From positions 1 through 32,490 of the forward strand of contig CACZIV010000037.1 in NCBI GenBank assembly GCA_902781305.1: a stretch of 32,490 bases of DNA, in the 5' to 3' direction. Source of the stretch: Pseudoselenomonas ruminantium (GTDB lineage: Bacteria; Bacillota; Negativicutes; Selenomonadales; Selenomonadaceae). The notes beneath the pieces are model-generated. The model saw only the letters and a list, made by a program, of their open reading frames with translations, ran no database searches and was not told the DNA's origin. The position numbers and the translations under genes are program-made. This document shows, piece by piece, positions 12,055-32,404 of the stretch; the first letter of the stretch is position 1, and the number at the start of each line of letters is the position of its first letter.

Positions 12055-12957
12055 TTGATAAAAAAAGGGATTATTTTGGCAGGCGGTTCGGGTACTCGTT
12101 TGTATCCATTAACGAGAGTGGTTTCCAAGCAACTGATGCCTGTTTATGACAAGCCAATGATTTATTATCCGCTAAGTGCGTTAATGCTGGCTGGGATTAA
12201 GGATATTTTGATTATCACAACGCCGCAGGATAATGAATCCTTTAAGAATTTGCTAGGGGATGGCAGTCAGTTAGGGATAAGTATTTCTTATGCAATTCAG
12301 CCTAGTCCGGATGGATTGGCACAGGCTTTTCTGATTGGTGAGGATTTCATCAATGGTGAAGGTTGCGCATTGGTGCTGGGAGATAATATTTACTATGGCT
12401 CAGACTTGGCTCAATCGGTACAGCGTGCTGCATCTATGGAAGACGGCGCGACAGTTTTTGCTTATTATGTGTCCGACCCGGAACGCTATGGTGTAGTGGA
12501 ATTTGATGAACATGGCCATGCCCTGAGTTTAGAAGAAAAGCCGGCTCAGCCAAAATCAAATTATGCGGTAACGGGGTTGTATTTCTACGACAAGGATATT
12601 GTCGATGTTGCAAAATCCATTAAGCCTTCGGCGCGTGGTGAATTGGAAATCACAGATGTCAACAAGGTATATCTGGAACGCGGCAAGTTGCAGGTGGAGA
12701 AGATGCGTCGTGGTTATGCATGGTTGGATACGGGAACCCATGAATCTCTGCTCGATGCGGCATCTTTTGTGCGGACGATTCAGGCGCGGCAGGGGCTGAA
12801 GATTGCCTGCCTTGAGGAAATTGCCTATCGTATGGGCTATATTGATGCGGCACAGGTGGAGCGATTGGCACAGCCACTGCTGAAGAATGAGTATGGCAAA
12901 TATCTTATCCGCAAGAATGAGTATGGCAAATATCTTATCCGCATGATTCGGGAATAA
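12055..12957 (+). CDS. rmlA: Glucose-1-phosphate thymidylyltransferase
   Basis: 300 residues. It would catalyse the first step of dTDP-rhamnose synthesis: glucose-1-phosphate plus dTTP to dTDP-glucose. The nucleotide-binding signature [11 protein letters not shown] sits at 10-20; [24 protein letters not shown], the EEKP region and [13 protein letters not shown] are all present in order. Start is TTG, with a strong GGAGGTG 7 nt upstream. The oddity is at the C-terminus: the last conserved block, [10 protein letters not shown], occurs twice in a row from a perfect 30-bp tandem duplication, making the protein about ten residues longer than expected. The active site is unaffected, so the enzyme is probably functional. 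It heads the rmlA-rmlC-rmlB run. Confidence 0.97.
12883..12942 (+). repeat. Perfect 30-bp tandem duplication inside the rmlA 3' end
   Basis: Bases 12883-12912 and 12913-12942 are identical, adjacent and in frame, each encoding [10 protein letters not shown]. The identity at every third position points to a recent slippage or unequal-exchange event. Confidence 0.97.
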
Positions 12958-22321: not shown

Positions 22322-22392
22322 GCCGGCAGGGATATGTTTCGGCGCGATTTACGCGGCTTGCGCGTACTAGCGCCGAAACATATCCCTGCCGG
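22322..22392. repeat. Long hairpin element, type A, copy 1
   Basis: Arms 22322-22345 and 22370-22392 pair over 23 bp without mismatch, with one more G-T pair possible at the base. The 24-nt loop contains a second hairpin: TACGCG (22350-22355) with CGCGTA (22361-22366), 5-nt loop. It begins 15 bases after korC and is followed by GGTGGCTTTTTGG, so it probably terminates the kor operon. Copy 2 at 25333-25406 has a matching structure, with five substituted stem pairs all compensated on the other arm. Confidence 0.92.
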
Positions 22393-22418
22393 TGGCTTTT
22401 TGGCTCGATGTAAAAGAC

Positions 22419-22497
22419 GCCCGGTGGCTGACATTACTTTTCCTCTGCTTAGACAGGCTTGTCAAACGCGACGGAAAAGCAATGTCAGCCACCGGGC
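22419..22497. repeat. Long hairpin element, type B, copy 1
   Basis: Arms 22419-22443 and 22473-22497 pair at 24 of 25 positions (one A-C mismatch) around a 29-nt loop. The loop holds the 17-base core TAGACAGGCTTGTCAAA (22450-22466), found identically in the loop of the copy at 32181-32260. The element is preceded by TAAAAGAC and followed by TTTGTTCTT; on the minus strand it is followed by GTCTTTTAC, so it can serve as terminator for the FliD-like gene. Confidence 0.92.
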
Positions 22498-22548
22498 TTT
22501 GTTCTTGGTTTCTCTCGGTGACTTTTGCTCATGGAGTTTTTACAGTTC

Positions 22549-23499
22549 TTAGAACATGGTGCTAAAGAGATTCCCAATCATGCCGTACTGAACGGTTGCG
22601 TTCAGCACTTGTGGGTTGGTGTAGGCCGAGGCGGTCTTGAGGGAGTTGCCGAACATGCTCTGCAGGGAGGGGAACAGTTTGTCGCTTTGGCTGTTGGCCT
22701 GAGCGAGATGCTGTTCAGCTTTGCCGGCAAGTCCGTTAGCACCCAGTGCATTTTTCACCCGGTCACCGTTTTCGGTGAGCGCGGTTGCCAGCTTGTCTTC
22801 ATCAACAGACATTTTGCCCGTCTTGCTGTCCACCGTGATGCCGAGTTGATTATAAGTGTCAGCCCGGTAGGTGGTGTCGGCAAACGACTTATGGAGTGAT
22901 TCCAGTCGTTTCCCCACGCTGCTGTAATCGCTGGTGAGGTCTAAGGCATCGTTGTAGTCGGAAACGAGCTGCTTGACGTTTTTGATGGCGTCCTTCAGGC
23001 CGTCGCTGTACGTCTTGCTGCCGTCTTCGGCTTCCGTGATGTCGTCCGCACTGAATTCGTAGCTCATGCTCTTGACGGTCTGGGCAGATTTTTGTAAATC
23101 GCCCATATAGGCCTTGAACTGGGTTTCAAAGGCAGACTTGGCTTCATTGTAGGAGTTTACAAGTCCTGCCGCACTGGAAGAAACGCCGGAAAGAGCACTT
23201 AAATTGGCGATTCCGCTGGAGTACGAATTGGTGTAACCGGACCAAAGGCTGCTGATGGAGTCCTGAGCGGCAGTCGTTTTCTTGTTGGCATGAGCCGAAT
23301 CAAAGGAACCGACTAAGTTGCTGAGTTGGCTGACATTGGCTGCAGCTGTGGAATAGCTTTTGCTTTGTGCAGAAGATTTGCTGGCGCTTTCCTCTGCTTC
23401 ACTGGCCGCTTTTTGTGCCGCAGTCGTGCCTTGGGTACCGCCCTGGGCCATCTTGTACATCGTGTACGTATCCCTGGTCATTGACGAAATGGTAGACAT
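22549..23499 (-). CDS. FliD-like (flagellar hook-associated protein 2, C-terminal region) protein
   Basis: 316 residues from the ATG whose first base is 23499, chosen for the strong GGAAAGGAGG about 7 nt upstream; the frame extends further without support. The C-terminal third matches the FliD_C pattern: VKQLVSDYNDALD, then YNQLGITVDSKTGKMSVDEDKLATAL and VKNALGANGLAGKAEQHL. The N-terminal 100 residues are Ser/Ala/Gln-rich and low in hydrophobics, resembling the coiled ends of flagellar axial proteins. No signal peptide is seen, as expected for a flagellar-exported protein. It is shorter than a complete filament cap, lacks recognisable D2/D3 domains, and has no flagellar gene beside it, so it may be a cap paralogue or a related secreted protein. 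Confidence 0.65.
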   Translation of the reverse strand: MSTISSMTRDTYTMYKMAQGGTQGTTAAQKAASEAEESASKSSAQSKSYSTAAANVSQLSNLVGSFDSAHANKKTTAAQDSISSLWSGYTNSYSSGIANLSALSGVSSSAAGLVNSYNEAKSAFETQFKAYMGDLQKSAQTVKSMSYEFSADDITEAEDGSKTYSDGLKDAIKNVKQLVSDYNDALDLTSDYSSVGKRLESLHKSFADTTYRADTYNQLGITVDSKTGKMSVDEDKLATALTENGDRVKNALGANGLAGKAEQHLAQANSQSDKLFPSLQSMFGNSLKTASAYTNPQVLNATVQYGMIGNLFSTMF

Positions 23500-23871
23500 G
23501 ATAAATCCTCCTTTCCTAAAATCTGGAAAGTGCGATACTCTCCTTATAGGTTTATCGTCATTTTTGCGGAAAAGCATAAGCATTTTTTGACACTGGGAAC
23601 AATTTCAACTAATAGGAATAGTCGCAGGTTATTAGGGGGAATAAAAGCAATAAATTTCAAGCAATGAGCCGCTTTTCAGAAAATATTTTTTTCCGTAGAT
23701 TTTCGTCAAAAATGTTTTACTTATGGGGACAAAGAGTGTAGAATAGTAGCTGATGGGAGTTAGCTCCCAGTTAATTTAGGCCGTAGACAGGACGCCATAC
23801 AGCGACTCCGGAAAACGGAGGTGTCCGTCTAAAATATAATATGTAGTAAAAGAATAGGTGGGGTTTACAAC
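23500..23871. promoter_or_regulatory. Divergent region between the FliD-like gene and pyk, with pyk promoter
   Basis: About 370 bases without a gene. TTTTAC (23715-23720) and TAGAAT (23739-23744), 18 bp apart, make a good promoter for pyk with transcription starting near 23751. On the minus strand, GACGATAA (read from TTATCGTC, 23552-23559) resembles a sigma-28 -10 box for the FliD-like gene, but no matching -35 is seen. A TTGACA at 23587-23592 has no convincing -10 partner. The structured leader is listed separately. Confidence 0.5.
23750..23830 (+). ncRNA. Structured 5' leader of pyk mRNA (unidentified, possible cis-regulatory RNA)
   Basis: Directly after the predicted transcription start, GGGAG (23755-23759) pairs with CTCCC (23764-23768) over a TTAG loop. 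Then AGACAGGAC (23785-23793) pairs with GTCCGTCT (23823-23830) with one bulged A, enclosing a hairpin CTCCG/CGGAG (23806-23810 with 23816-23820, GAAAA loop). It does not end in a T-run, so it is not a simple terminator. GGAGT in the first loop region could alternatively pair with ACTCC at 23805-23809. No known riboswitch class was recognised with confidence. Confidence 0.5.
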
Positions 23872-25284
23872 ATGTTAAAAAAGACGAAAATCATTTGCAC
23901 TCAGGGTCCGTCCACAGAGAAACCGGGCGTAATTGATGCGCTGCTCGCAAATGGCATGAACTGCGCACGTTTCAATTTCTCCCATGGTGACCACGAAGAA
24001 CATCTTGGCCGTATCAACATGGTTCGTGAAGCTGCCAAGAAGGCTGGCAAGGTTGTTTCTTTGATTCTCGATACCAAAGGTCCGGAAATGCGTCTGGGCG
24101 AGTTCAAAGATGGCAAAGTTATGCTGGAAAAGGGCAACCAGTTCACGCTGACTTATGACGATGTACCGGGTGATGAAACTCATGTTTCCGTAAACCACAA
24201 GGGCCTCTACACGGAAGTTAAGCCGGGCGATACCCTGCTCCTCTCCGATGGCCTCGTAGCCCTCAAAGTCGATGAAATCAAGGGCAAGGATATCGTTACG
24301 ACGATTCAGAACAGCGGCAAGATGAGCACGCGTAAGCGCGTAGCTGCTCCGGGCGTATCCCTGGGCCTGCCTCCTATCTCTGAACAGGATGCTAAGGACA
24401 TCATCTTTGGCTGCGAACAGGATATGGATTTCGTAGCTGCTTCCTTCATCCAGCGTCCGGATGACGTACTGGCTATCCGCAAGCTCATCGAAGAGCACAA
24501 TGGCCGTATGGAAATCATTCCGAAGATTGAAAATCTCGAAGGTGTTAAGAACTTCGATGCCATCCTCGAAGTTTCCGATGGTATCATGGTTGCCCGTGGT
24601 GACCTGGGCGTAGAAGTTCCGGCAGAAGATGTGCCCCTTATTCAGAAGGAAATCATCCGCAAGTGTAATGCTGCCGGCAAGCCGGTTATCGTTGCTACGC
24701 AGATGCTCGACTCCATGGAACGCAACCCGCGTCCGACTCGTGCAGAAGTATCCGACGTTGGTAACGCTATCCTCGATGGTACGGATGCAATCATGCTGTC
24801 CGGTGAAACGGCTTCCGGTGACTATCCGGTAGAAGCTGTTTCCACGATGAACCGCATCGCACAGCGCATCGAAAGCTCCCTCGAATACAAAGAACTCTTT
24901 GTAGAACGTGGTCTGCAGCATCTGAAGTCCCGTACGCGTGCTATTGCTCATGCTACGGTACAGATGGCCTATGAGCTCGATGTTCCGGCTATCATCACGC
25001 CGACTGAATCCGGTTACACGACGAAAGTTGTATCCAAGTATCGTCCGAAGGCTGCTATCGTAGCTTATACGCCGAGTGAAAAGGCTCTGCGTCAGCTGAA
25101 CCTCCGTTGGGGCGTATATCCGGTACTCGGTTCCATGTGGAAAGATGCCGATGAAATGCTCAGCAACGCTACGGCGGCTGCAGTTAAGGAAGGTCTTGTA
25201 CAGCGTGGCGATATGACCATCATCACGTCCGGTGTGAAGGCTGGCAAGGGCAACTCCAGCTCCGTACGCGTGTACAACATCTAA
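23872..25284 (+). CDS. pyk: Pyruvate kinase
   Basis: 470 residues. It converts phosphoenolpyruvate and ADP to pyruvate and ATP, the last step of glycolysis. Hallmarks in order: KIICTQGPST (6-15), CARFNFSHGDHEEH with the phosphate-binding R33 and N35-S37, LDTKGPEMR, SFIQRPDDV, IIPKIENLEGVKNFD (catalytic lysine region), MVARGDLGVE (metal site), TQMLDSMERNPRPTRAEVSDV and LSGETASGDYPVEAV. The C-domain ends in a standard effector-binding fold, without the extra phosphohistidine domain seen in Bacillus Pyk. AGGTGGGG about 9 nt before the ATG is the ribosome binding site. Codon use is strongly biased, as in highly expressed genes; this leaves long open frames on the opposite strand. The leader upstream may regulate it. 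Confidence 0.98.
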   Translation: MLKKTKIICTQGPSTEKPGVIDALLANGMNCARFNFSHGDHEEHLGRINMVREAAKKAGKVVSLILDTKGPEMRLGEFKDGKVMLEKGNQFTLTYDDVPGDETHVSVNHKGLYTEVKPGDTLLLSDGLVALKVDEIKGKDIVTTIQNSGKMSTRKRVAAPGVSLGLPPISEQDAKDIIFGCEQDMDFVAASFIQRPDDVLAIRKLIEEHNGRMEIIPKIENLEGVKNFDAILEVSDGIMVARGDLGVEVPAEDVPLIQKEIIRKCNAAGKPVIVATQMLDSMERNPRPTRAEVSDVGNAILDGTDAIMLSGETASGDYPVEAVSTMNRIAQRIESSLEYKELFVERGLQHLKSRTRAIAHATVQMAYELDVPAIITPTESGYTTKVVSKYRPKAAIVAYTPSEKALRQLNLRWGVYPVLGSMWKDADEMLSNATAAAVKEGLVQRGDMTIITSGVKAGKGNSSSVRVYNI

Positions 25285-25585
25285 GTAAATACCACGATGG
25301 GGTTCGGGTTCGTATAACATCGTGACATAAAGGGCCGGCGGCGGCATGTTTCTGCGCAAGTACGCGCTATGCGTGTAAAAAGCGCAGAAACATGCCGCCG
25401 CCGGCCTTCGTGCGTGTTTATTGCGTGTACTAGCGCAGGAATAAGTTGCCATGGACTTTCGGCTGGTATGGCAAAATCTGAATCCCTAAAGGGACTAGCG
25501 TTGCGCTGCATATAGCGTTATAATGAAAAAGTGTTATCTTTACAGATAATTTACATAGTCAAGTGTTATGATAGGAGCCGTGGAG
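25285..25585 (+). promoter_or_regulatory. Intergenic region after pyk, with promoter for the downstream genes
   Basis: About 300 bases without a gene. It contains the type A hairpin (25333-25406), which probably ends the pyk transcript. A further loop-like sequence lies at 25421-25438. A clear TATAAT (25519-25524), about 60 bases before the metallo-hydrolase start, is the likely -10, with no good -35. Confidence 0.5.
25333..25406. repeat. Long hairpin element, type A, copy 2
   Basis: Arms 25333-25357 and 25382-25406 are perfectly complementary over 25 bp, around a 24-nt loop. The loop holds TACGCG (25361-25366), which can pair with CGTGTA (25372-25377) using one G-T pair and a 5-nt terminal loop, matching copy 1 at 22322-22392. 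It lies 48 bases past the pyk stop. Confidence 0.93.
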
Positions 25586-26347
25586 ATGCAGGTTAGGATT
25601 TTGGCCAGTGGCAGCAAGGGCAATGCTGTTTTTGTGGAAATGGACGGCACGAAGCTGTTGATTGATGCTGGCATCAGCGCCACGAAAATTAAAAAGGGTC
25701 TGGCGGAGCTGGGCGTCGATGCCGCCTCCCTGGATGGTGTGCTGATTACCCATGAGCACCGCGACCATGTGGCGGGGCTGGTGACGCTTTCGAAGTGGTA
25801 TCACCTTCCAATCTTTACCCGTCAGGGCACAATTGAGCACATGAAAGAGCGGGCGGCGATTCCGGCAGAATGTTTCTGCCCTGTGGGGGAACGCTTTTCC
25901 GTTAATGGGCTGGCGGTGGAGAGTTTTAATATCTCGCATGATGCCGCCGAGCCTGTGGGCTATCGGCTCAAAGGCTGCAAGAATGTAACCTTGGCTACAG
26001 ACCTTGGTTTTGTGACGTCTAATGTGCAGGCTGCCATTGAAGGCGCAGATGTGCTGATTTTGGAGTCCAATCATGACCCCGAGGTGTTGAAGCAGGGCAG
26101 CTATCCATGGCATCTGAAACGGCGCATTTTATCCAATCGCGGGCATTTGGCCAACAGTGATGCTGCCTGGGCACTTATCCGTATGCAGAAACGTCCGGAG
26201 AAGGTTTTTCTCGCGCATCTGTCAGAGGAAAATAATCGCCCGGAACTGGCAGAGAATACTGTACAGGGAATTTTGGAACGTCAGGGTGTAAACATGGATT
26301 TAACCGTGGCTAGTCAAACCGAAATGGTCGGCTGGTATATGAATTGA
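25586..26347 (+). CDS. Metallo-beta-lactamase-fold hydrolase, YycJ/WalJ type
   Basis: 253 residues from the ATG at 25586, with AGGAG 8 nt upstream; an ATG at 25568 has no binding site. The metal-binding motif THEHRDH (55-61) and later metal ligands (SHD near 118, ATDLG near 138) place it in the metallo-beta-lactamase superfamily. The start [15 protein letters not shown] and [30 protein letters not shown]-like block are typical of YycJ, a predicted 5' to 3' DNA exonuclease. In many Firmicutes yycJ lies in the walRK operon beside an HtrA-type protease and the rlmH gene, and the same two genes follow here, although walRK itself is absent. The biochemical role is less certain than the family. Confidence 0.92.
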   Translation: [253 protein letters not shown]

Positions 26348-26363
26348 ATTTGGAGGGATTTTC

Positions 26364-27467
26364 ATGAATAAGAAGAAAACTTCACTGATGGTTGCGGCGA
26401 TGCTGGCTTTGTCGGCAGTCTCTTTTTCGGGGTGTTCGGCAGGGACGGCATCCGATAATTCGGCCAGCGTCAGCAGCAATACGCAAAGCGCACCGGCAGC
26501 ACATACGGAAGTAAAGTTGTCGGATGCCCGTAATACACCGGCTGTGCGTGCAGCAAAAACTGTTGGCCCTGCTGTGGTGGGGATAACCAACAAGGCTGTG
26601 GTTAGGGACTGGTTCAATAATCCCGTGGAAACGCAGGGCGTAGGTTCCGGCGTTATCTTCCGGGAAGATGGCTATATTGTCACCAATAACCATGTGGTAA
26701 GCGGAGCGAAGGAAATCATTGTTTCCCTGCCAGATGGCCGCAGCCTGAAGGGGAAACTCATCGGTGCTGATGAGCTTACCGACTTGGCTGTAGTCAAGGT
26801 GGAGGCGAAAGACCTGCCTACGGCAAAATTCGGCAACTCGGACCAGATTGTGGTCGGAGAACCGGCTATTGCGATCGGTAACCCCATGGGACTGGAATTT
26901 CAGGGCAGTGTGACCAGCGGTGTGGTCAGTGCTGTCAATCGTACGTTGGATATCAGTGACAAGCTGGTGAAACTGATTCAGACGGATGCGGCCATCAATC
27001 CTGGTAATTCCGGTGGTGCGCTCGTGAATGCGGATGGTGAGGTCATCGGTATCAACAGTGCAAAACTGGCTGCCAGCGGCGTAGAGGGCATGGGCTTTGC
27101 TATTCCGACGAATACCGTGCAGAACATCATTGACGAGATTATGAATAAGGGCTATGTGGCCCGTCCGTATTTGGGTGTGTCGGTCTTTGACCCGCAGACT
27201 GCCGGTCGTTATGGCTATCAGCTGAATATTGACAAGGGCGTCTATGTCTTCCAGTTGAGTTTGAACGGCCCCTGTGGCAAAGCAGGTCTGCAGCGTGGGG
27301 ATATCATCCTCAAGGTCAATGATGAGGAAGTAAACTCCGTTTCCGATTTGCGGGCTAAGGTTGCCAGCTATAAAGTCGGCGATACGGTGAAGGTCACCTA
27401 TGACCGCAATGGTGCCAGCCGTACGGCGGATGTTGTCCTCGAAGAAATGCCGCAGGATAACCGCTGA
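26364..27467 (+). CDS. htrA: HtrA/DegP-type serine protease with PDZ domain, predicted lipoprotein
   Basis: 367 residues. The N-terminus (MNKKKTSLMVAAMLALSAVS then FSGC) is a signal peptide with a lipobox-like end, so C24 is probably lipidated and the protein anchored on the outside of the inner membrane. A short Ser/Ala linker leads to the trypsin-like domain with catalytic H110 (TNNHVVSG), D140 (DELTDLAVV) and S216 (NPGNSGGAL). One PDZ domain occupies about 260-360 (YLGVSVFDP, GDIILKVNDEEVNSVSDL). It would degrade or refold damaged envelope proteins. GGAGGG precedes the ATG. It follows yycJ by 16 bp and overlaps rlmH by one base, the conserved Firmicute arrangement. Confidence 0.96.
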   Translation: MNKKKTSLMVAAMLALSAVSFSGCSAGTASDNSASVSSNTQSAPAAHTEVKLSDARNTPAVRAAKTVGPAVVGITNKAVVRDWFNNPVETQGVGSGVIFREDGYIVTNNHVVSGAKEIIVSLPDGRSLKGKLIGADELTDLAVVKVEAKDLPTAKFGNSDQIVVGEPAIAIGNPMGLEFQGSVTSGVVSAVNRTLDISDKLVKLIQTDAAINPGNSGGALVNADGEVIGINSAKLAASGVEGMGFAIPTNTVQNIIDEIMNKGYVARPYLGVSVFDPQTAGRYGYQLNIDKGVYVFQLSLNGPCGKAGLQRGDIILKVNDEEVNSVSDLRAKVASYKVGDTVKVTYDRNGASRTADVVLEEMPQDNR

Positions 27468-27946
27468 TGAAGATAACGATTGTCTGTGCGGGCAAAATCA
27501 AGGAAAAATATCTTACGGCAGGCATTGCGGAATTTATGAAACGATTGAAACCTTTTGCACAGGTTGAGATTCGTGAGATACATGAAGAAAAAATGCCGGA
27601 TTCGCCATCTGAGGCGGAGAAAGAACAGGTGCTGGCCAAAGAAGGCGAAAAACTGCTGAAGCTGGTGCCGGAGGGCAGTTATCTTTTTGTGCTCGATGTG
27701 TTCGGCAAAGAGAAGTCCTCTGAAGAGCTGGCGGCAGCGATTGACCGGCTGGGCCTCTCCGGCCGCAGCAATATCACCTTTCTGATTGGTGGTGCCTTTG
27801 GTCTTTCCAAAGAGGTACGCAAGGCTGCAGATGAGCTTTTAAGCTTTTCGCAGATGACCTTTACCCATCAGATGGTGAGGCTCCTGCTCGTCGAACAGAT
27901 TTACCGCGCCTTTAAGATTAACCGCGGGGAAAAATATCATTGGTAA
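27467..27946 (+). CDS. rlmH: 23S rRNA (pseudouridine-1915 N3) methyltransferase
   Basis: 159 residues, the expected length of RlmH (YbeA/SPOUT family). It methylates pseudouridine 1915 in helix 69 of 23S rRNA on the assembled ribosome. Markers are the start MKITIVCAGKIKEKY, the SAM-binding knot with FVLDVFGKEKSSEELA and FLIGGAFGLSKEV, and the conserved tail MTFTHQMVRLLLVEQIYRAFKINRGEKYHW (quoted as overlapping parts of the C-terminus). The start codon shares a base with the htrA stop, so translation is coupled. A rho-independent hairpin follows directly, ending the yycJ-htrA-rlmH operon. Confidence 0.97.
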   Translation: MKITIVCAGKIKEKYLTAGIAEFMKRLKPFAQVEIREIHEEKMPDSPSEAEKEQVLAKEGEKLLKLVPEGSYLFVLDVFGKEKSSEELAAAIDRLGLSGRSNITFLIGGAFGLSKEVRKAADELLSFSQMTFTHQMVRLLLVEQIYRAFKINRGEKYHW

Positions 27947-27948
27947 GT

Positions 27949-27975
27949 GAAAGCCGTCCCAAACCGGGGCGGCTT
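27949..27975 (+). terminator. Rho-independent terminator after rlmH
   Basis: AAAGCCGTCCC (27949-27959) pairs with GGGGCGGCTTT (27965-27975), including one T-G pair, over a 5-nt loop, three bases after the rlmH stop. A TATAAT at 27981-27986 right after it is a likely -10 for the next operon. Confidence 0.8.
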
Positions 27976-28019
27976 TGTGGTATAATGAAGGTAAATTCTA
28001 AGCGCGAGGGGCGATGGCG

Positions 28020-28997
28020 ATGCGTAACCTATATGGCCTGATGGCATTAATCATGGGATGGGGCGGAATGTATGGCATAACGCATGAGCAGGGAGCGATT
28101 GGTCTTCTGCTGATGGCAGCCATGGGCATTAGCATTTATAAAGGGCAGCTGCCGCAAAGTGTTGTGCGGAAGCTCGATGTCAGTCAGTTGGCTGCGGCAC
28201 AGGCGGACACTGTTTTGGCGGATTGGGAAAAAGCTCGGGAAGATTATAACCGGGTGGAAGACGCCCGCACCAAAATTCGGGACAGTCAGTTAAGCCGGCA
28301 GCTGGGGCTTATGCAGCAGGAGGCGGCAAGGCTTTTAAATTATGTGGAAAAGCACCCGGAACGCATTGCGGCGGCAGGGCGCTTTATTCATTACTATCAG
28401 GATAGGGCAGCCAGCCTTTGTGAGCAATATCGGGAACTGGAAGAAACCAAGCTGGAGACCGAACAGGTGCAACAGGTAAAGGCACGGCTGAAAGAAACGT
28501 TGGTCAGCTTTGATGAGGCTTACAATGCAGAGTTCACGAAGATTATCAACAGCCAGCTCCTCGATATGGATGCCGAACTTACGGTAATGCAGCAGTCGTT
28601 GGAGGCTGAGGGAATCAGCAACGGCAGTAAGGAAACTGTCAATGTGGAACTGAATGCAAACAGCGAGCCGGTTTCTACGGGGATTGGGCGCAAAAAACGC
28701 CCCCGCAGTGGAGCACTCACCAAGGTTGGCGGGCAGGAAATTGCAGTGGGTAGGGAGAAGATTACTACACCGGATAATGTGCGCAATTCTGTGCTGCTGC
28801 AAAAAATGATTATGAGCGGCCTGGCAATCACGTTAGGCTCATTTGGTGCACATAAATTCTTTCAAGGGAAAACCAAGTGGGGGATTGCGTATGTGGTCTT
28901 TTTCTGGACGTTGATTCCTGCTTTGGTATCTGTGGTAGAAGGGATAAGATACTTATTTATGCCGGTAGATGATTTTTACGAGCAATATTATCGTTAA
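28020..28997 (+). CDS. XpaC-like (5-bromo-4-chloroindolyl phosphate hydrolysis family) protein with C-terminal TM2 domain
   Basis: 325 residues from the ATG at 28020; GAGGGG is about 8 nt ahead of it but only 2 nt from the ATG at 28014. Two hydrophobic segments lie at about 5-40, followed by a long charged helical region (55-200) with the XpaC-type pattern (VRKLDVSQLA, LLNYVEKHPERIAAAGRFIHYYQDRAASLCEQYRELE). A polar linker (205-255) leads to a TM2 domain (LAITLGSFGAHKFFQGKTKWGIAYVVFFW), two membrane spans with the charged turn. XpaC was named for an indirect phosphatase phenotype in Bacillus; it is not an obvious enzyme. It pairs with telA, 15 nt downstream, as in many Firmicutes. Confidence 0.83.
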   Translation: MRNLYGLMALIMGWGGMYGITHEQGAIGLLLMAAMGISIYKGQLPQSVVRKLDVSQLAAAQADTVLADWEKAREDYNRVEDARTKIRDSQLSRQLGLMQQEAARLLNYVEKHPERIAAAGRFIHYYQDRAASLCEQYRELEETKLETEQVQQVKARLKETLVSFDEAYNAEFTKIINSQLLDMDAELTVMQQSLEAEGISNGSKETVNVELNANSEPVSTGIGRKKRPRSGALTKVGGQEIAVGREKITTPDNVRNSVLLQKMIMSGLAITLGSFGAHKFFQGKTKWGIAYVVFFWTLIPALVSVVEGIRYLFMPVDDFYEQYYR

Positions 28998-29012
28998 ACG
29001 GAGGGGCTGACC

Positions 29013-30173
29013 ATGGAAGTTAAATTAGAAGATTTGATGAAAGCCAAAACAGGTATTGCAAGTGCCGATGTGACGCCGGACAACCTGCCGTCTGCAGAGG
29101 TGATGACGGCACAGGTGGAAAAGGTGGTAAACGACCTGAATCCGGAGGAGCGGGCGCAGGTTGATAAGATAAAGGACGAATTGGATTTGACCGATTCTAC
29201 GGCCATTTTGCGTTTTGGCGCGCCTGCCCAGCAGAAAATAGCTGAGTTTTCGGACAGCGTGCTTTCACAGGTGCGCACGAAGGACAGCGGCCCGGTCGGG
29301 GAGCTGTTGGGCAATCTTGTAACCCAGGTGCGGGACTTTGAGCCGGAGGGCGGCTCGAGCTTCTTGAAGAAGATTCCGTTGGTGGGCAGTCTGGTGAAAA
29401 AAGGCGAGGATATCAAGCAGGGGTATGAGAAGCTGTCCACACAGGTAGAGCGCATTCAGACCAATTTGGAGCAGGCCAAGCTGAAAATGATGAAGGATGT
29501 GGCGCTGTTCGATAAGCTCTACGCAGAAAATCTGAGTTATTTCAAGCAGCTGCAGCTCTATATTCAGGCTGGTGAAGAAAAACTTACGGAAATGCGGGAA
29601 GTTACCCTGCCCAAACTGCGCCAGCAGGCAGCGGATTCCGGCGACCCGATGGCGGTACAGGTGGTGGCCGATTTTGAGGCCAGCGTGAACCGTTTTGAGA
29701 AAAAGGTACATGACCTTAAAATCAGCAAGACGATTGCCATTCAGTCTGCACCGCAAATCCGCCTGATTCAGAATAATGATAAGGCGCTTATTGACCGGGT
29801 GCAGACGGCTATCTACAGCACGATTCCCCTGTGGAAGAATCAGCTGGTGATTGCTTTGGGACTGCAGGCACAGCAGGATGTACTGCGCATGCAGCAGGCT
29901 GTCAACAATACCACAAATGAACTCTTGCGCCGCAATGCAGAACTTTTGCAGCAGAACAGCATTGAGACCGCGCAGGAAAATGAGCGCAGTATTGTGGATA
30001 TTGAGACGGTTCGGGAGGTTAATGACCGCCTGATCAATACCATTGAGGAAACGATTAAGATTCAGCAAAATGGCCGTGCCAAACGGCAGGCGGCAGAAGC
30101 GGAACTGGTGCAGATTGAAGGCAGATTACGGGAAACGCTGCTGAAGAACAGTGGCAGGCAGGGGGCTCAGTAA
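29013..30173 (+). CDS. telA: TelA-family (toxic anion resistance) protein
   Basis: 386 residues, mostly charged helix, matching the TelA/KlaA family along its length. Recognisable stretches are the N-terminal FGAPAQQKIAEFSDSVLSQVR near 68-88, LKKIPLVGSLVKKGEDIKQGYEKLSTQVERI in the middle, LYAENLSYFKQLQLYIQAGEEKL, and the C-terminal PLWKNQLVIALGLQAQQDVLRMQQAVNNTTNELLRRNAELLQ (fragments of the conserved blocks). No membrane span is seen. Members are linked to tellurite resistance and, in Firmicutes, to tolerance of cell-wall antibiotics and stress; mechanism unknown. It follows the XpaC-TM2 gene with GGAGGGG at the start and is immediately followed by the penicillin-binding protein, so an envelope function is plausible. 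Confidence 0.92.
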   Translation: MEVKLEDLMKAKTGIASADVTPDNLPSAEVMTAQVEKVVNDLNPEERAQVDKIKDELDLTDSTAILRFGAPAQQKIAEFSDSVLSQVRTKDSGPVGELLGNLVTQVRDFEPEGGSSFLKKIPLVGSLVKKGEDIKQGYEKLSTQVERIQTNLEQAKLKMMKDVALFDKLYAENLSYFKQLQLYIQAGEEKLTEMREVTLPKLRQQAADSGDPMAVQVVADFEASVNRFEKKVHDLKISKTIAIQSAPQIRLIQNNDKALIDRVQTAIYSTIPLWKNQLVIALGLQAQQDVLRMQQAVNNTTNELLRRNAELLQQNSIETAQENERSIVDIETVREVNDRLINTIEETIKIQQNGRAKRQAAEAELVQIEGRLRETLLKNSGRQGAQ

Positions 30174-32153
30174 ATGAAGAAGAAACGCCGGGAAATACAA
30201 CGGCGGATCAGTGTTTTAGCGTTATTTATGCTGGGGGCAGTGGTGCTTATCGTCTGCCGCTATGCATGGTTGCAACTGGTGCAGGGAAGTGCACTCGGTG
30301 AGCGGATGAAGGCGCAGGTAGGGCAGGATTATGCCATCCAGTCGCCACGCGGGACAATTCTCGACCGGAATGGACGGGAATTAGCGGTCAGCACCATGAC
30401 GAAATCTTTGTATATTGACCCGTCCCATGTGGAAAATCCGCAGGAGTTAGCGGAAAACTTAGCGCCGCTTATAGGCAAGACTGAACAGGATATTTTGGAT
30501 GATGTTGCTGTGGGCGGTGGCTTTGTCTGGGTAAAACGGCGCATGGAGCAGGCTGAATACGAGGCTGTGCGTCAGCTTATCCGGGAAAAGGAATATATGT
30601 CCTGCCTGGGCTTTAGGGATGAGGCCAAGCGTTATTATCCGAATGATGTGTTGGCGGCTAATGTGCTGGGATTCGTAGGCACGGATGACAAAGGTCTTGA
30701 TGGAATAGAGCAGGCCTTAGATGCCATGTTAAAGGGTGAAGTCAAGGAAACCTATCTTACCACAGACCGGCAGGCACGACCGATTTTGGATTCGATTTTT
30801 TCCAGCCGCCGCCGTTATATGGGCGATTCCTGCAAGACGGTGGAATTGACAATCGACAGCGGTATTCAGTTCATTGTGGAGCAGGAACTGGACCGGGCTA
30901 TCGCGGAGAATAATCCCAAGGCGATAACCTGCGTGGTGATGAATCCAAAGAATGGGGAAGTGCTGGCCATGGCCTCCCGTCCTTCATATAATCCGAATAA
31001 ATTCTGGGATTATAATGCAGAAGTTTGGAAAAACCGCGCGGTGTCCTTTATCTATGAGCCGGGATCTACCTTTAAGTCAGTGGTGGCTGGCGCTGCTTTG
31101 CAGGAAAAGGTTGTAAGCCCTAATCAGGTGTTTGTTGACCCAGGCTATGTTATGGTTTCGGGGCGGCGTATTCAGAACTGGAATGGTGAAAGTTTTGGTA
31201 CGGTTACCTTTACTGATGTAGTTAAACAGTCTTTGAATACTGGCTTTGCACAGGTAGGCCTGCGCTTAGGCGCCGAGCGCCTGATGAAGTATGCCCGTGA
31301 TTTTGGCTTTGGTGAGCCGACAGGCATAGACTTGCCGGGCGAGGAAAGCGGCATCCTCTTTAAGCCGGAGGATATGCGTGATTCGGATATGGCGACCTCT
31401 GCTATAGGGCAGAGTATTGCGGTGACTCCCTTGCAGCTGGTTACGGCTGTGTCGGCTATTGCCAATGATGGCGTGTTGTTAAAGCCACATATTGTGAAAA
31501 CTATCCGTAATGCGGATGGCAGCGTTTATGAAGAACGGGGCAAGACCGAAGTGCGCCGGGTTATTGATTCGGCCACGGACAAGACTTTGATGGGCTTGTT
31601 GGAGCAGGTTGTAGCCAGCGGCGGTGGTGCCAAGGCACAGGTCAAAGGCTATCGTATCGGCGGTAAGACTGGTACTGCACAGAAAATCCGTGAAGATGGC
31701 AGTGGCTATATGGATGGCCGTTATATTGCATCTTTCTGCGGTTTTGCGCCTGTAGAAGACCCGCAGCTTACGGTGTTAGTCATGATTGATGACCCGGGTA
31801 CAGGCAACTTCTATGGCGGCCAGATTGCAGCACCGGTGGCTGGGCGTATTTTTGCCCAGTTGTTCCGTCAAATGCATATTGAACCTTCAAGTGACCCTTT
31901 TGCGGGCATGGAACCGGCGGAAAAGAAAACGCAGCATAGGCCTGCGCGTCCCTTTACGGGGGCTGTTCCCGATGGCAAGGTTGTCGTGCCGGATTTTGCC
32001 GGGAAGAGTCTGCGTGAAGCTGCCGGACTGGCAGCGGATAAAGGATTGACTTTCCAAAGTGAAGGGTCAGGGTATGCCGTAGGGCAGAGTATCGAAATGA
32101 ATACGCTGGTGGATAAGGGGACGGCGATTACCGTGTACTTTGAGCCAGGATAA
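30174..32153 (+). CDS. Class B penicillin-binding protein (SpoVD/FtsI type) with one PASTA domain
   Basis: 659 residues. A short cytoplasmic tail and one membrane span (about 10-35) lead to the PBP dimerisation domain (SPRGTILDRNGRELA near 57-71) and then the transpeptidase domain. The active-site serine is S298 in EPGSTFK, the second motif is S353-L354-N355, and the third is K498-T-G-T. A single PASTA domain occupies the last 55 residues (VVVPDFAGKSLREAAGLAADKG). This layout is that of SpoVD or PBP2x/FtsI, a peptidoglycan transpeptidase acting with a SEDS glycosyltransferase in division or spore cortex synthesis. Which of these it serves cannot be told from sequence; no ftsW, spoVE, mraY or mur gene is adjacent. 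It begins right after the telA stop. Confidence 0.93.
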   Translation: MKKKRREIQRRISVLALFMLGAVVLIVCRYAWLQLVQGSALGERMKAQVGQDYAIQSPRGTILDRNGRELAVSTMTKSLYIDPSHVENPQELAENLAPLIGKTEQDILDDVAVGGGFVWVKRRMEQAEYEAVRQLIREKEYMSCLGFRDEAKRYYPNDVLAANVLGFVGTDDKGLDGIEQALDAMLKGEVKETYLTTDRQARPILDSIFSSRRRYMGDSCKTVELTIDSGIQFIVEQELDRAIAENNPKAITCVVMNPKNGEVLAMASRPSYNPNKFWDYNAEVWKNRAVSFIYEPGSTFKSVVAGAALQEKVVSPNQVFVDPGYVMVSGRRIQNWNGESFGTVTFTDVVKQSLNTGFAQVGLRLGAERLMKYARDFGFGEPTGIDLPGEESGILFKPEDMRDSDMATSAIGQSIAVTPLQLVTAVSAIANDGVLLKPHIVKTIRNADGSVYEERGKTEVRRVIDSATDKTLMGLLEQVVASGGGAKAQVKGYRIGGKTGTAQKIREDGSGYMDGRYIASFCGFAPVEDPQLTVLVMIDDPGTGNFYGGQIAAPVAGRIFAQLFRQMHIEPSSDPFAGMEPAEKKTQHRPARPFTGAVPDGKVVVPDFAGKSLREAAGLAADKGLTFQSEGSGYAVGQSIEMNTLVDKGTAITVYFEPG

Positions 32154-32180
32154 TGTATTATTACATCTATGTATAAAGAC

Positions 32181-32260
32181 GCCGGCGGGGCCGGTAATAT
32201 TTTCCTTCGCCATAGACAGGCTTGTCAAAAGCTGCGGAAAATATCACCGGCCCCGCCGGC
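32181..32260. repeat. Long hairpin element, type B, copy 2
   Basis: Arms 32181-32205 and 32236-32260 pair at 24 of 25 positions (one A-C mismatch) around a 30-nt loop. The loop contains TAGACAGGCTTGTCAAA (32213-32229), identical to the core of copy 1 at 22450-22466, and the base is preceded by ATAAAGAC as in that copy. The arms differ from copy 1 at 13 positions, yet still pair with each other. It starts 27 bases after the penicillin-binding protein stop. Confidence 0.93.
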
Positions 32261-32404
32261 TTATTGCGTAGATTAAATTGCAGTTTGTCGGGGAGTTCGT
32301 GATAAAGGTATCTGGTTCATACGTGGTTAGGGGGCGAACGGGGGAGTACTTTTTCTGATTCCGCTAAACGACCCTCCATGAAAGAAATCGTTGTTTAGCT
32401 ATAT

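What the first reader, a model, noticed from the sequence alone, without database searches (positions are those of the whole stretch)
22419..32260. Type B hairpins: identical loop core, very different but self-complementary arms
The copies at 22419-22497 and 32181-32260 share a 17-base loop core, the inner stem (TTTTCC/GGAAAA), the outer GCC/GGC and the GAC flank, but 13 of 25 arm positions differ. Each copy still pairs at 24 of 25. Ordinary divergence of a dispersed repeat would break the stem; here the pairing is kept while the sequence is replaced. That points either to selection on the RNA/DNA hairpin or to a copying process that rewrites one arm from the other. I know no named element with this pattern.
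Basis: partly seen in the sequence, partly recalled or inferred. Interest (0 to 1): 0.8.

Follow-up and report, generated by a model that had tools for sequence, protein, structure and literature searches.

The report
Giant hairpin repeats at gene ends
The two hairpins belong to a large family of long DNA hairpins scattered behind genes in a rumen bacterium, at places where related bacteria carry ordinary stop signals for transcription, and evolution keeps the two sides of each hairpin matching while the letters change.

Summary
The core (up to 3 mismatches) occurs 163 times in this Selenomonas ruminantium-type genome, control 9. Of 257 full-length copies from three genomes, 250 pass a pairing threshold. 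Two-sided Watson-Crick changes number 650 cells against 213 mismatched. Orthologous copies show 59 compensated pairs where about 5 are expected.

It is a genus-restricted, REP/BIME-like palindromic family lying behind genes: 120 of 121 clusters with two called flanking genes are in non-divergent regions. Type X is sense in 128 of 139 codirectional cases, type Y antisense in 16 of 16. Intergenic regions holding it carry canonical terminators less often, and at the two window loci most genomes without it have ordinary terminators.

Best reading: long hairpins that took over mRNA 3'-end formation, kept by selection on pairing plus exchange between copies. Against: G.T is no commoner than A.C, most tails lack a U tract, and no RNA data exist. 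No GTAG tag, no RAYT over cut-off in 22 genomes, no Rfam match in the window.

The parts
22416..22497 (+). copy 1, type X: unpaired GAC (22416-22418) and hairpin 22419-22497
   Evidence: covariance model R1 hit 103.5 bits
22419..22443 (+). copy 1, 5' arm (24 of 25 paired with 22473-22497)
22450..22466 (+). copy 1, 17-base core with the apical GACA/TGTC hairpin
22473..22497 (+). copy 1, 3' arm
32178..32260 (+). copy 2, type X: unpaired GAC (32178-32180) and hairpin 32181-32260; hairpin begins 27 bases after the stop codon ending at 32153
   Evidence: R1 hit 105.5 bits
32181..32205 (+). copy 2, 5' arm (24 of 25 paired with 32236-32260)
32213..32229 (+). copy 2, 17-base core
32236..32260 (+). copy 2, 3' arm
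30174..32153 (+). context, not part of the element: gene upstream of copy 2, penicillin-binding protein with PASTA domain
   Evidence: Pfam PF00905, PF03717, PF03793
21774..22307 (+). context: gene upstream of copy 1, 2-oxoacid ferredoxin oxidoreductase subunit (Pfam POR)
   Evidence: Pfam PF01558
22549..23583 (-). context: gene convergent on copy 1, FliD C-terminal-like
   Evidence: Pfam PF07195

Best explanation
The two hairpins are members of a REP/BIME-like family of long palindromic repeats in Selenomonas ruminantium and near relatives. A unit is an unpaired 5' AAGRC, a stem of about 25 base pairs or more with a variable outer part and a conserved inner part (TTTTCC/GGAAAA) that holds A.C mismatches at fixed places, and an apical hairpin. 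Same-orientation neighbours mostly recur every 110-129 bp. Units lie just behind stop codons at the ends of transcription units: type X in the sense direction, alone or in tandem (up to five in one intergenic region in the set read), sometimes closed by an antisense type Y unit. Most likely mechanism: the transcribed sense hairpin forms and protects the mRNA 3' end, by termination (perhaps Rho-assisted, because most copies have no U tract) or by stopping 3' exonucleases, and the family has displaced ordinary intrinsic terminators. The arms stay complementary because broken stems are selected against and because copies exchange sequence with each other. Shown here: family, pairing, compensation, position, orientation, scarcity of canonical terminators. 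Inferred: action on RNA, selection as the cause, and the way the family spreads.
For: 163 core matches against 9 in the control. 250 of 257 copies pass the pairing threshold, arm lengths correlate at 0.99 in those 250; own arms score median 46, swapped arms 18. Two-sided Watson-Crick 650 cells, mismatches 213, all 257 copies; 59 compensated pairs between orthologues, about 5 expected. Flanking genes of clusters ++ 58, +- 45, -- 17, -+ 1, five without both. Stop codon to estimated foot of the nearest sense copy: median 25 nt, quartiles 18-33, n = 133. X sense 128 of 139, Y antisense 16 of 16 in codirectional regions. All 37 mixed clusters put every + copy before every - copy. Canonical terminators in 11 of 45 convergent regions with elements, 9 of 11 without (p 0.0008); codirectional 14 of 71 against 80 of 204 (p 0.003). 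At the two window loci element and canonical terminator are nearly exclusive across the genus.
Against: If selection acted on the sense RNA, G.U should be commoner than A.C as an intermediate; it is not (67 against 83; 96 against 126), and the - strand folds better than the + strand in both window copies. Most tails lack a U tract: the share with 6 or more T in 9 is 9 to 34% among sense copies by position, so a minority do have T-rich tails. One cluster lies in a divergent region. At locus 1 three genomes without the element have no terminator either (G004, G013, G017). Copy 1 itself begins 112 bases behind its upstream gene, with another hairpin between. Only 11 convergent regions without elements passed the length filter. 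No RNA data.
Confidence: 0.55

Rival explanations
1. A non-autonomous mobile repeat whose single-stranded hairpin is the substrate of a transposase not yet found. Position behind genes reflects only the removal of harmful insertions, and terminators are lost where it lands.
For: Fixed stem mismatches and an unpaired 5' AAGRC resemble the irregular stem and unpaired tag that TnpA-REP recognises (passages of PMC8266576). One X X Y cluster is present in G000 (L245) and absent in G003 (L213) with clean ends, in a divergent region. Copy number within orthologous clusters varies.
Against: No RAYT over cut-off in 22 genomes; no element within the 24 Y1-gene loci searched; bearers G006, G010, G011 and G017 have no Y1 match at all. 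No related gene family beside clusters. Does not by itself predict X sense / Y antisense.
Confidence: 0.25
2. The arms are kept complementary by mutation, not selection: template switching within the palindrome copies one arm onto the other (quasipalindrome correction), so compensated changes need no function.
For: The process is documented and has been proposed to maintain RNA hairpins (abstract and opening of PMC8794818). Compensated changes show no preference for G.T intermediates. Half elements and chimeras show that the palindromes are unstable.
Against: A.C mismatches persist at fixed positions; one-sided changes outnumber two-sided ones between orthologues; it says nothing about position and orientation.
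Confidence: 0.12
3. A binding site on duplex or cruciform DNA for a nucleoid protein or gyrase between transcription units, as reported for E. coli BIMEs (recalled).
For: Regular tandem spacing and placement between transcription units.
Against: A duplex site should conserve sequence; the outer arms conserve complementarity instead. It does not predict fewer canonical terminators.
Confidence: 0.05

Closest known systems
REP sequences with a GTAG tag, mobilised by RAYT/TnpA-REP
   Same: High-copy intergenic palindromes mostly behind genes, unpaired bases at one foot, conserved stem irregularity in the long E. coli type (PMC3733652 section and passages, PMC8266576 passages).
   Different: Foot reads AAGRC, not GTAG, in the aligned copies; stems about 25 bp or more against 5-13 bp; head-to-tail neighbours dominate (96 same-orientation against 37 opposite) where REPs are mostly head-to-head or tail-to-tail dimers; no RAYT over cut-off.
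CGTC-tagged REPs
   Same: Palindromes behind genes without a dedicated transposase; many X units read GACG, the complement of CGTC, at the 5' foot.
   Different: Stems of 8-9 bp and a CCA-like tail in that family; much longer stems here; that paper names no Selenomonas, Veillonella, Negativicutes or Firmicutes.
BIME composites of E. coli
   Same: Mosaics of two palindrome types in one intergenic region, one type inverted against the other.
   Different: Order is fixed relative to the gene: X sense first, Y antisense last.
Intrinsic (Rho-independent) terminators
   Same: G+C-rich hairpin shortly behind the stop codon, at the ends of transcription units; a few copies (type Z, four rows) have A and T tracts.
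   Different: Dispersed repeat with a shared core, much longer stem, most tails without a U tract.
MITE-like repeats such as ERIC, BOX, RUP, bcr1 (recalled, not compared)
   Same: Short, structured, dispersed intergenic repeats.
   Different: Here the outer arms differ between copies yet stay complementary; no target duplication was established.

Membership tests
GTAG REP | unpaired GTAG at one foot | tested here: not met
   The 80 aligned copies read AAGRC or variants at the 5' foot
GTAG REP | associated RAYT gene in the genome | tested here: not met
   0 of 22 genus genomes over the NF047646 cut-off; weak matches in 6, the E. coli control over cut-off class rings; two of the Y1 proteins are IS200/IS605
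GTAG REP | more than 100 intergenic copies, mostly behind genes | tested here: met
   163 core matches; 120 of 121 clusters not divergent
GTAG REP | conserved irregularity in the stem (long E. coli type) | tested here: met
   A.C at two stem positions in 36 and 58 of 80; at one column in 129 of 257
CGTC REP | stem of 8-9 bp | tested here: not met
   25-bp arms in both window copies; stem columns median 34.5 with flank pairs in 250 copies
CGTC REP | CGTC tag at one end | tested here: inconclusive
   GACG, its complement, is common at the 5' foot; the paper's figures, which would settle orientation, are not held
BIME | palindromes in alternating orientation | tested here: inconclusive
   37 of 126 clusters are mixed, all + then -, the rest one orientation
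Intrinsic terminator | hairpin shortly behind the stop codon | tested here: met
   median about 25 nt, n = 133
Intrinsic terminator | U tract directly after the hairpin | tested here: not met
   6 or more T in 9 in 34% of single, 25% of first, 24% of last and 9% of middle sense copies; 20 copies without a recognised foot left out
Intrinsic terminator | ends transcription in the cell | not testable with these tools
   needs 3'-end mapping
MITE | target-site duplication | tested here: inconclusive
   one clean presence/absence case with a short suggestive direct repeat only
any Rfam family | score over gathering cut-off | tested here: not met
   0 in the window; in L197, L216, L264 only a tRNA in L216 is over its cut-off

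The most novel reading that the evidence does not exclude
A dispersed repeat has taken over transcript 3'-end formation across one bacterial lineage: oriented giant hairpins, mostly without a U tract (sense X units, some closed by an antisense Y unit), displaced intrinsic terminators at many transcription-unit ends, and keep their stem pairing and fixed mismatches while the outer stem and the apical loop turn over.
Probability: 0.35. Interest if true: 0.75.

Novelty: new variant of a known kind. Interest (0 to 1): 0.55.

Why it matters
If the elements form 3' ends, a repeat family has substituted for a basic gene-expression signal in one lineage, with relatives that preserve the state before and after at the same loci. 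The family is also a natural data set of many paralogous and orthologous hairpins in which compensatory mutation, conversion between copies and template switching can be told apart., in a partial open-access library, listed no paper on such repeats in Selenomonas or Negativicutes.

Tried and rejected
RAYT-mobilised REP as a family assignment: rejected. Type A hairpins as a second dispersed family: rejected, their loop pattern occurs 0 to 4 times per genome. A known Rfam RNA: none apart from a tRNA. A mobiliser gene beside the clusters: the 10 within-genome groups among 247 flanking genes are duplicated G010 loci or single genes lying between two clusters. The core as a universal recognition site: rejected. 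Insertion of the core into a native terminator with its T tract kept: not supported for most copies, but four type Z rows look like it.

Limits of the counts. Stretches were taken around listed places only (the listed part of 163 in G000 and of 132 in G003, all 13 in G010): 259 core hits with up to 2 mismatches, 258 unique, 257 full-length. A first, naive ORF call put 56 hits inside ORFs, mostly short ones; the coding-score caller put none inside but misses genes, for instance in the AT-rich part of the window. Distances to stop codons use a foot placed at a fixed distance from the core, so they are good to several bases. X and Y were told apart by a motif rule; type Z counts as X there. A1 (80 rows) was taken from the best-paired copies, so the 97.8% pairing is inflated; one search used all 257. 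R1 was built from A1, and only 150 candidates per genome were scored, so counts of 147-150 are lower bounds. The single G002 hit (L347) reads as a different hairpin. Terminators were called by my own script. Orthologue pairs rest on one or two matching flanks, need 80% element identity, share genomes and are not independent. The output was cut, so its examples are those shown. One search showed wrong regions for several genomes; redid them, still without usable ends for G016 and G006 at locus 1.
Full report
OBSERVATION. Both fold far better than dinucleotide shuffles on either strand.

FAMILY. In the window's genome (G000, 2.79 Mb draft) the 17-base core with up to 3 mismatches occurs 95 + 68 times, control 5 + 4. 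Of 31 genomes searched for the exact 16-base core, 8 have it, all of the window's genus. A covariance model finds matches in 13 of 22 genus genomes: 147-150 in five (150 is the scoring cap), 104-106 in three, 19-38 in four, 1 in one, 0 in nine. In the outlying genomes G017 and G005, and in one of two G013 copies, the scaffold is kept but the apical sequence is another one.

ANATOMY. From alignment A1: AAGRC, outer stem of variable sequence and length, inner stem with TTTTCC/GGAAAA, internal loop, apical GACA/TGTC hairpin, then usually GGGCTTA. Type X has AAGRCGCCCG at the foot; type Y has AAGRCGGAGGGG. Four rows, type Z (L197:12829-12932, L239:3914-4017, L256:4001-4104, L271:3974-4077), have the core between terminator-like arms with A and T tracts. 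At two stem positions A faces C in 36 and 58 of 80 sequences; in all 257 copies one such column has A.C in 129.

PAIRING. 250 of 257 full-length copies pass the threshold and in these the two arm lengths correlate at 0.99. Median pairing score is 46 for own arms and 18 for arms swapped between copies. On an alignment of all 257, 17 predicted pairs give 3471 cells with the commonest pair, 650 with another Watson-Crick pair changed on both sides, 67 G.T, 83 A.C and 63 other. On the selected 80, 348 cells change on both sides against a shuffled mean of 71.5 and at most 71 in slid versions. Copies are related, so cells are not events. Orthologues come nearer to events: 138 non-identical pairs (4 identical ones set aside) show 59 two-sided Watson-Crick changes, one-sided changes to or from G.T 96, A.C 126 and other mismatches 86, 32 other one-sided and 26 other two-sided. 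Coincidence predicts about 5 two-sided. The two window copies have G010 orthologues with compensated changes (L298, L319).

EXCHANGE. L226 and L259 are orthologous with the 5' arm replaced and the 3' arm kept; L197 and L275 keep the outer arms and differ in the inner hairpin. Chimeric copies (L207, L212, L273, L287) and half elements (L195, L248) are among the 14 lowest scorers. Exchange between copies thus happens and sometimes breaks pairing.

PLACE. 126 clusters have flanking genes ++ 58, +- 45, -- 17, -+ 1 and five lack a called gene on one side; no copy lies inside a gene called by the coding score, though a naive ORF call put 56 inside mostly short ORFs. In all 37 mixed clusters every + copy precedes every - copy; in a wider set it is 47 of 48, the exception (L135) being a chimera. 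Same-orientation neighbours lie 110-129 bp apart in 76 of 96 cases. From the stop codon to the estimated foot of the nearest sense copy the median is 25 nt, quartiles 18 and 33, n = 133. In codirectional regions X is sense in 128 of 139 and Y antisense in 16 of 16. Codirectional regions keep a median 227 nt besides the elements, at most 60 nt in 6 of 71, so they look like unit boundaries more than operon gaps. Copy 2 is typical (27 bases behind a penicillin-binding protein gene); copy 1 lies in a convergent region, 112 bases behind its upstream gene with the type A hairpin between.

TERMINATORS. With the elements masked, a canonical intrinsic terminator is found in 11 of 45 convergent regions with elements and 9 of 11 without (p = 0.0008, either strand, regions of 60 nt or more); codirectional 14 of 71 against 80 of 204 on the upstream gene's strand (p = 0.003). 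Shuffled regions gave 2%. Two loci were read across the genus. Locus 1, behind the penicillin-binding protein gene, 22 genomes: six bear the element (G000, G003, G007, G010, G011, G031); of these four have no terminator call and G031 and G007 have calls that overlap the element's own arms. Fourteen are without it: 11 have a terminator call (G001's is weak, but a canonical hairpin is visible), and G004, G013 and G017 have none. G016 and G006 could not be read to the gene end. Locus 2, beside the FliD-like gene, 21 genomes: seven bear the element and none of them has a terminator call; of 14 without it 12 have a call (G002's weak), G005 has none, and G033 gave only 95 bases. In the most distant genomes of locus 2 the neighbouring gene may differ, so the comparison there is of the same gene end, not always of the same intergenic region. 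Element and canonical terminator are thus nearly exclusive at both loci.

MOBILITY. One clean presence/absence case: an X X Y cluster in G000 (L245) missing in G003 (L213), in the one divergent region. Gain and loss cannot be told apart and the short direct repeat is only suggestive. L071 lacks the hairpin of L223 but keeps its foot, as palindrome deletion would leave. No RAYT over cut-off in 22 genomes; two Y1 proteins tested are IS200/IS605; no element in the 24 Y1 loci searched.

RESULTS AGAINST THE MAIN READING. G.T intermediates are not commoner than A.C, and the - strand folds better than the sense strand, which speaks against simple selection on the sense RNA. Most tails lack a U tract, but 9 to 34% of sense copies, by position in the array, have 6 or more T in 9.

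LITERATURE SEEN. PMC8794818: abstract and opening. PMC3733652: abstract and outline, passages, one section. PMC8266576: passages. All others as search listings. E. coli REPs have a conserved stem mismatch needed by their enzyme; REPs in general lie behind genes and many are thought to act as RNA. BIME binding of gyrase and the like is recalled.

VERDICT. A REP/BIME-like family of unusual stem length and fixed order that stands where terminators stand. The constraint on structure is shown; its action on RNA is inferred. The overall odds were set at 0.55 after the G.T/A.C result and the small control set of convergent regions were weighed in.

Noticed in passing
window 22323-22392 and 25333-25406: Two type A hairpins with perfect arms of 23 and 25 bp and 24-base loops; the loop pattern TACGCGNNNTGCGYGTA occurs in 7 of 22 genus genomes, 0-4 times each, in several as a pair about 3 kb apart. 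The one at 25333 scores 35 bits with model R1.
   Followed up: partly
window 32348-32370: A second dispersed repeat, ACTTTTTCT...CGCTAAAYG, in 13 of 22 genus genomes, up to 44 times (G001), no control match; many copies lie within a few hundred bases of contig starts, as part of a longer repeat would.
   Followed up: partly
L195 near 4177, L248 near 3952, L064 near 1047: Half elements (loop and 3' arm only) directly behind a full element, joined by a short stretch resembling CGATACRATTGCT.
   Followed up: no
L032/L033 (G000 C8:89306-89603) and L031 (G000 C42:5-295): IS200-type transposase remnants in the window's genome, one split between frames, one cut by the contig end.
   Followed up: partly
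window 12883-12942: An exact 30-base tandem duplication inside ORF 12055-12957.
   Followed up: no
L135 2923-3039: The only cluster of 48 mixed ones with a - copy before a + copy; the - copy is a chimera.
   Followed up: partly
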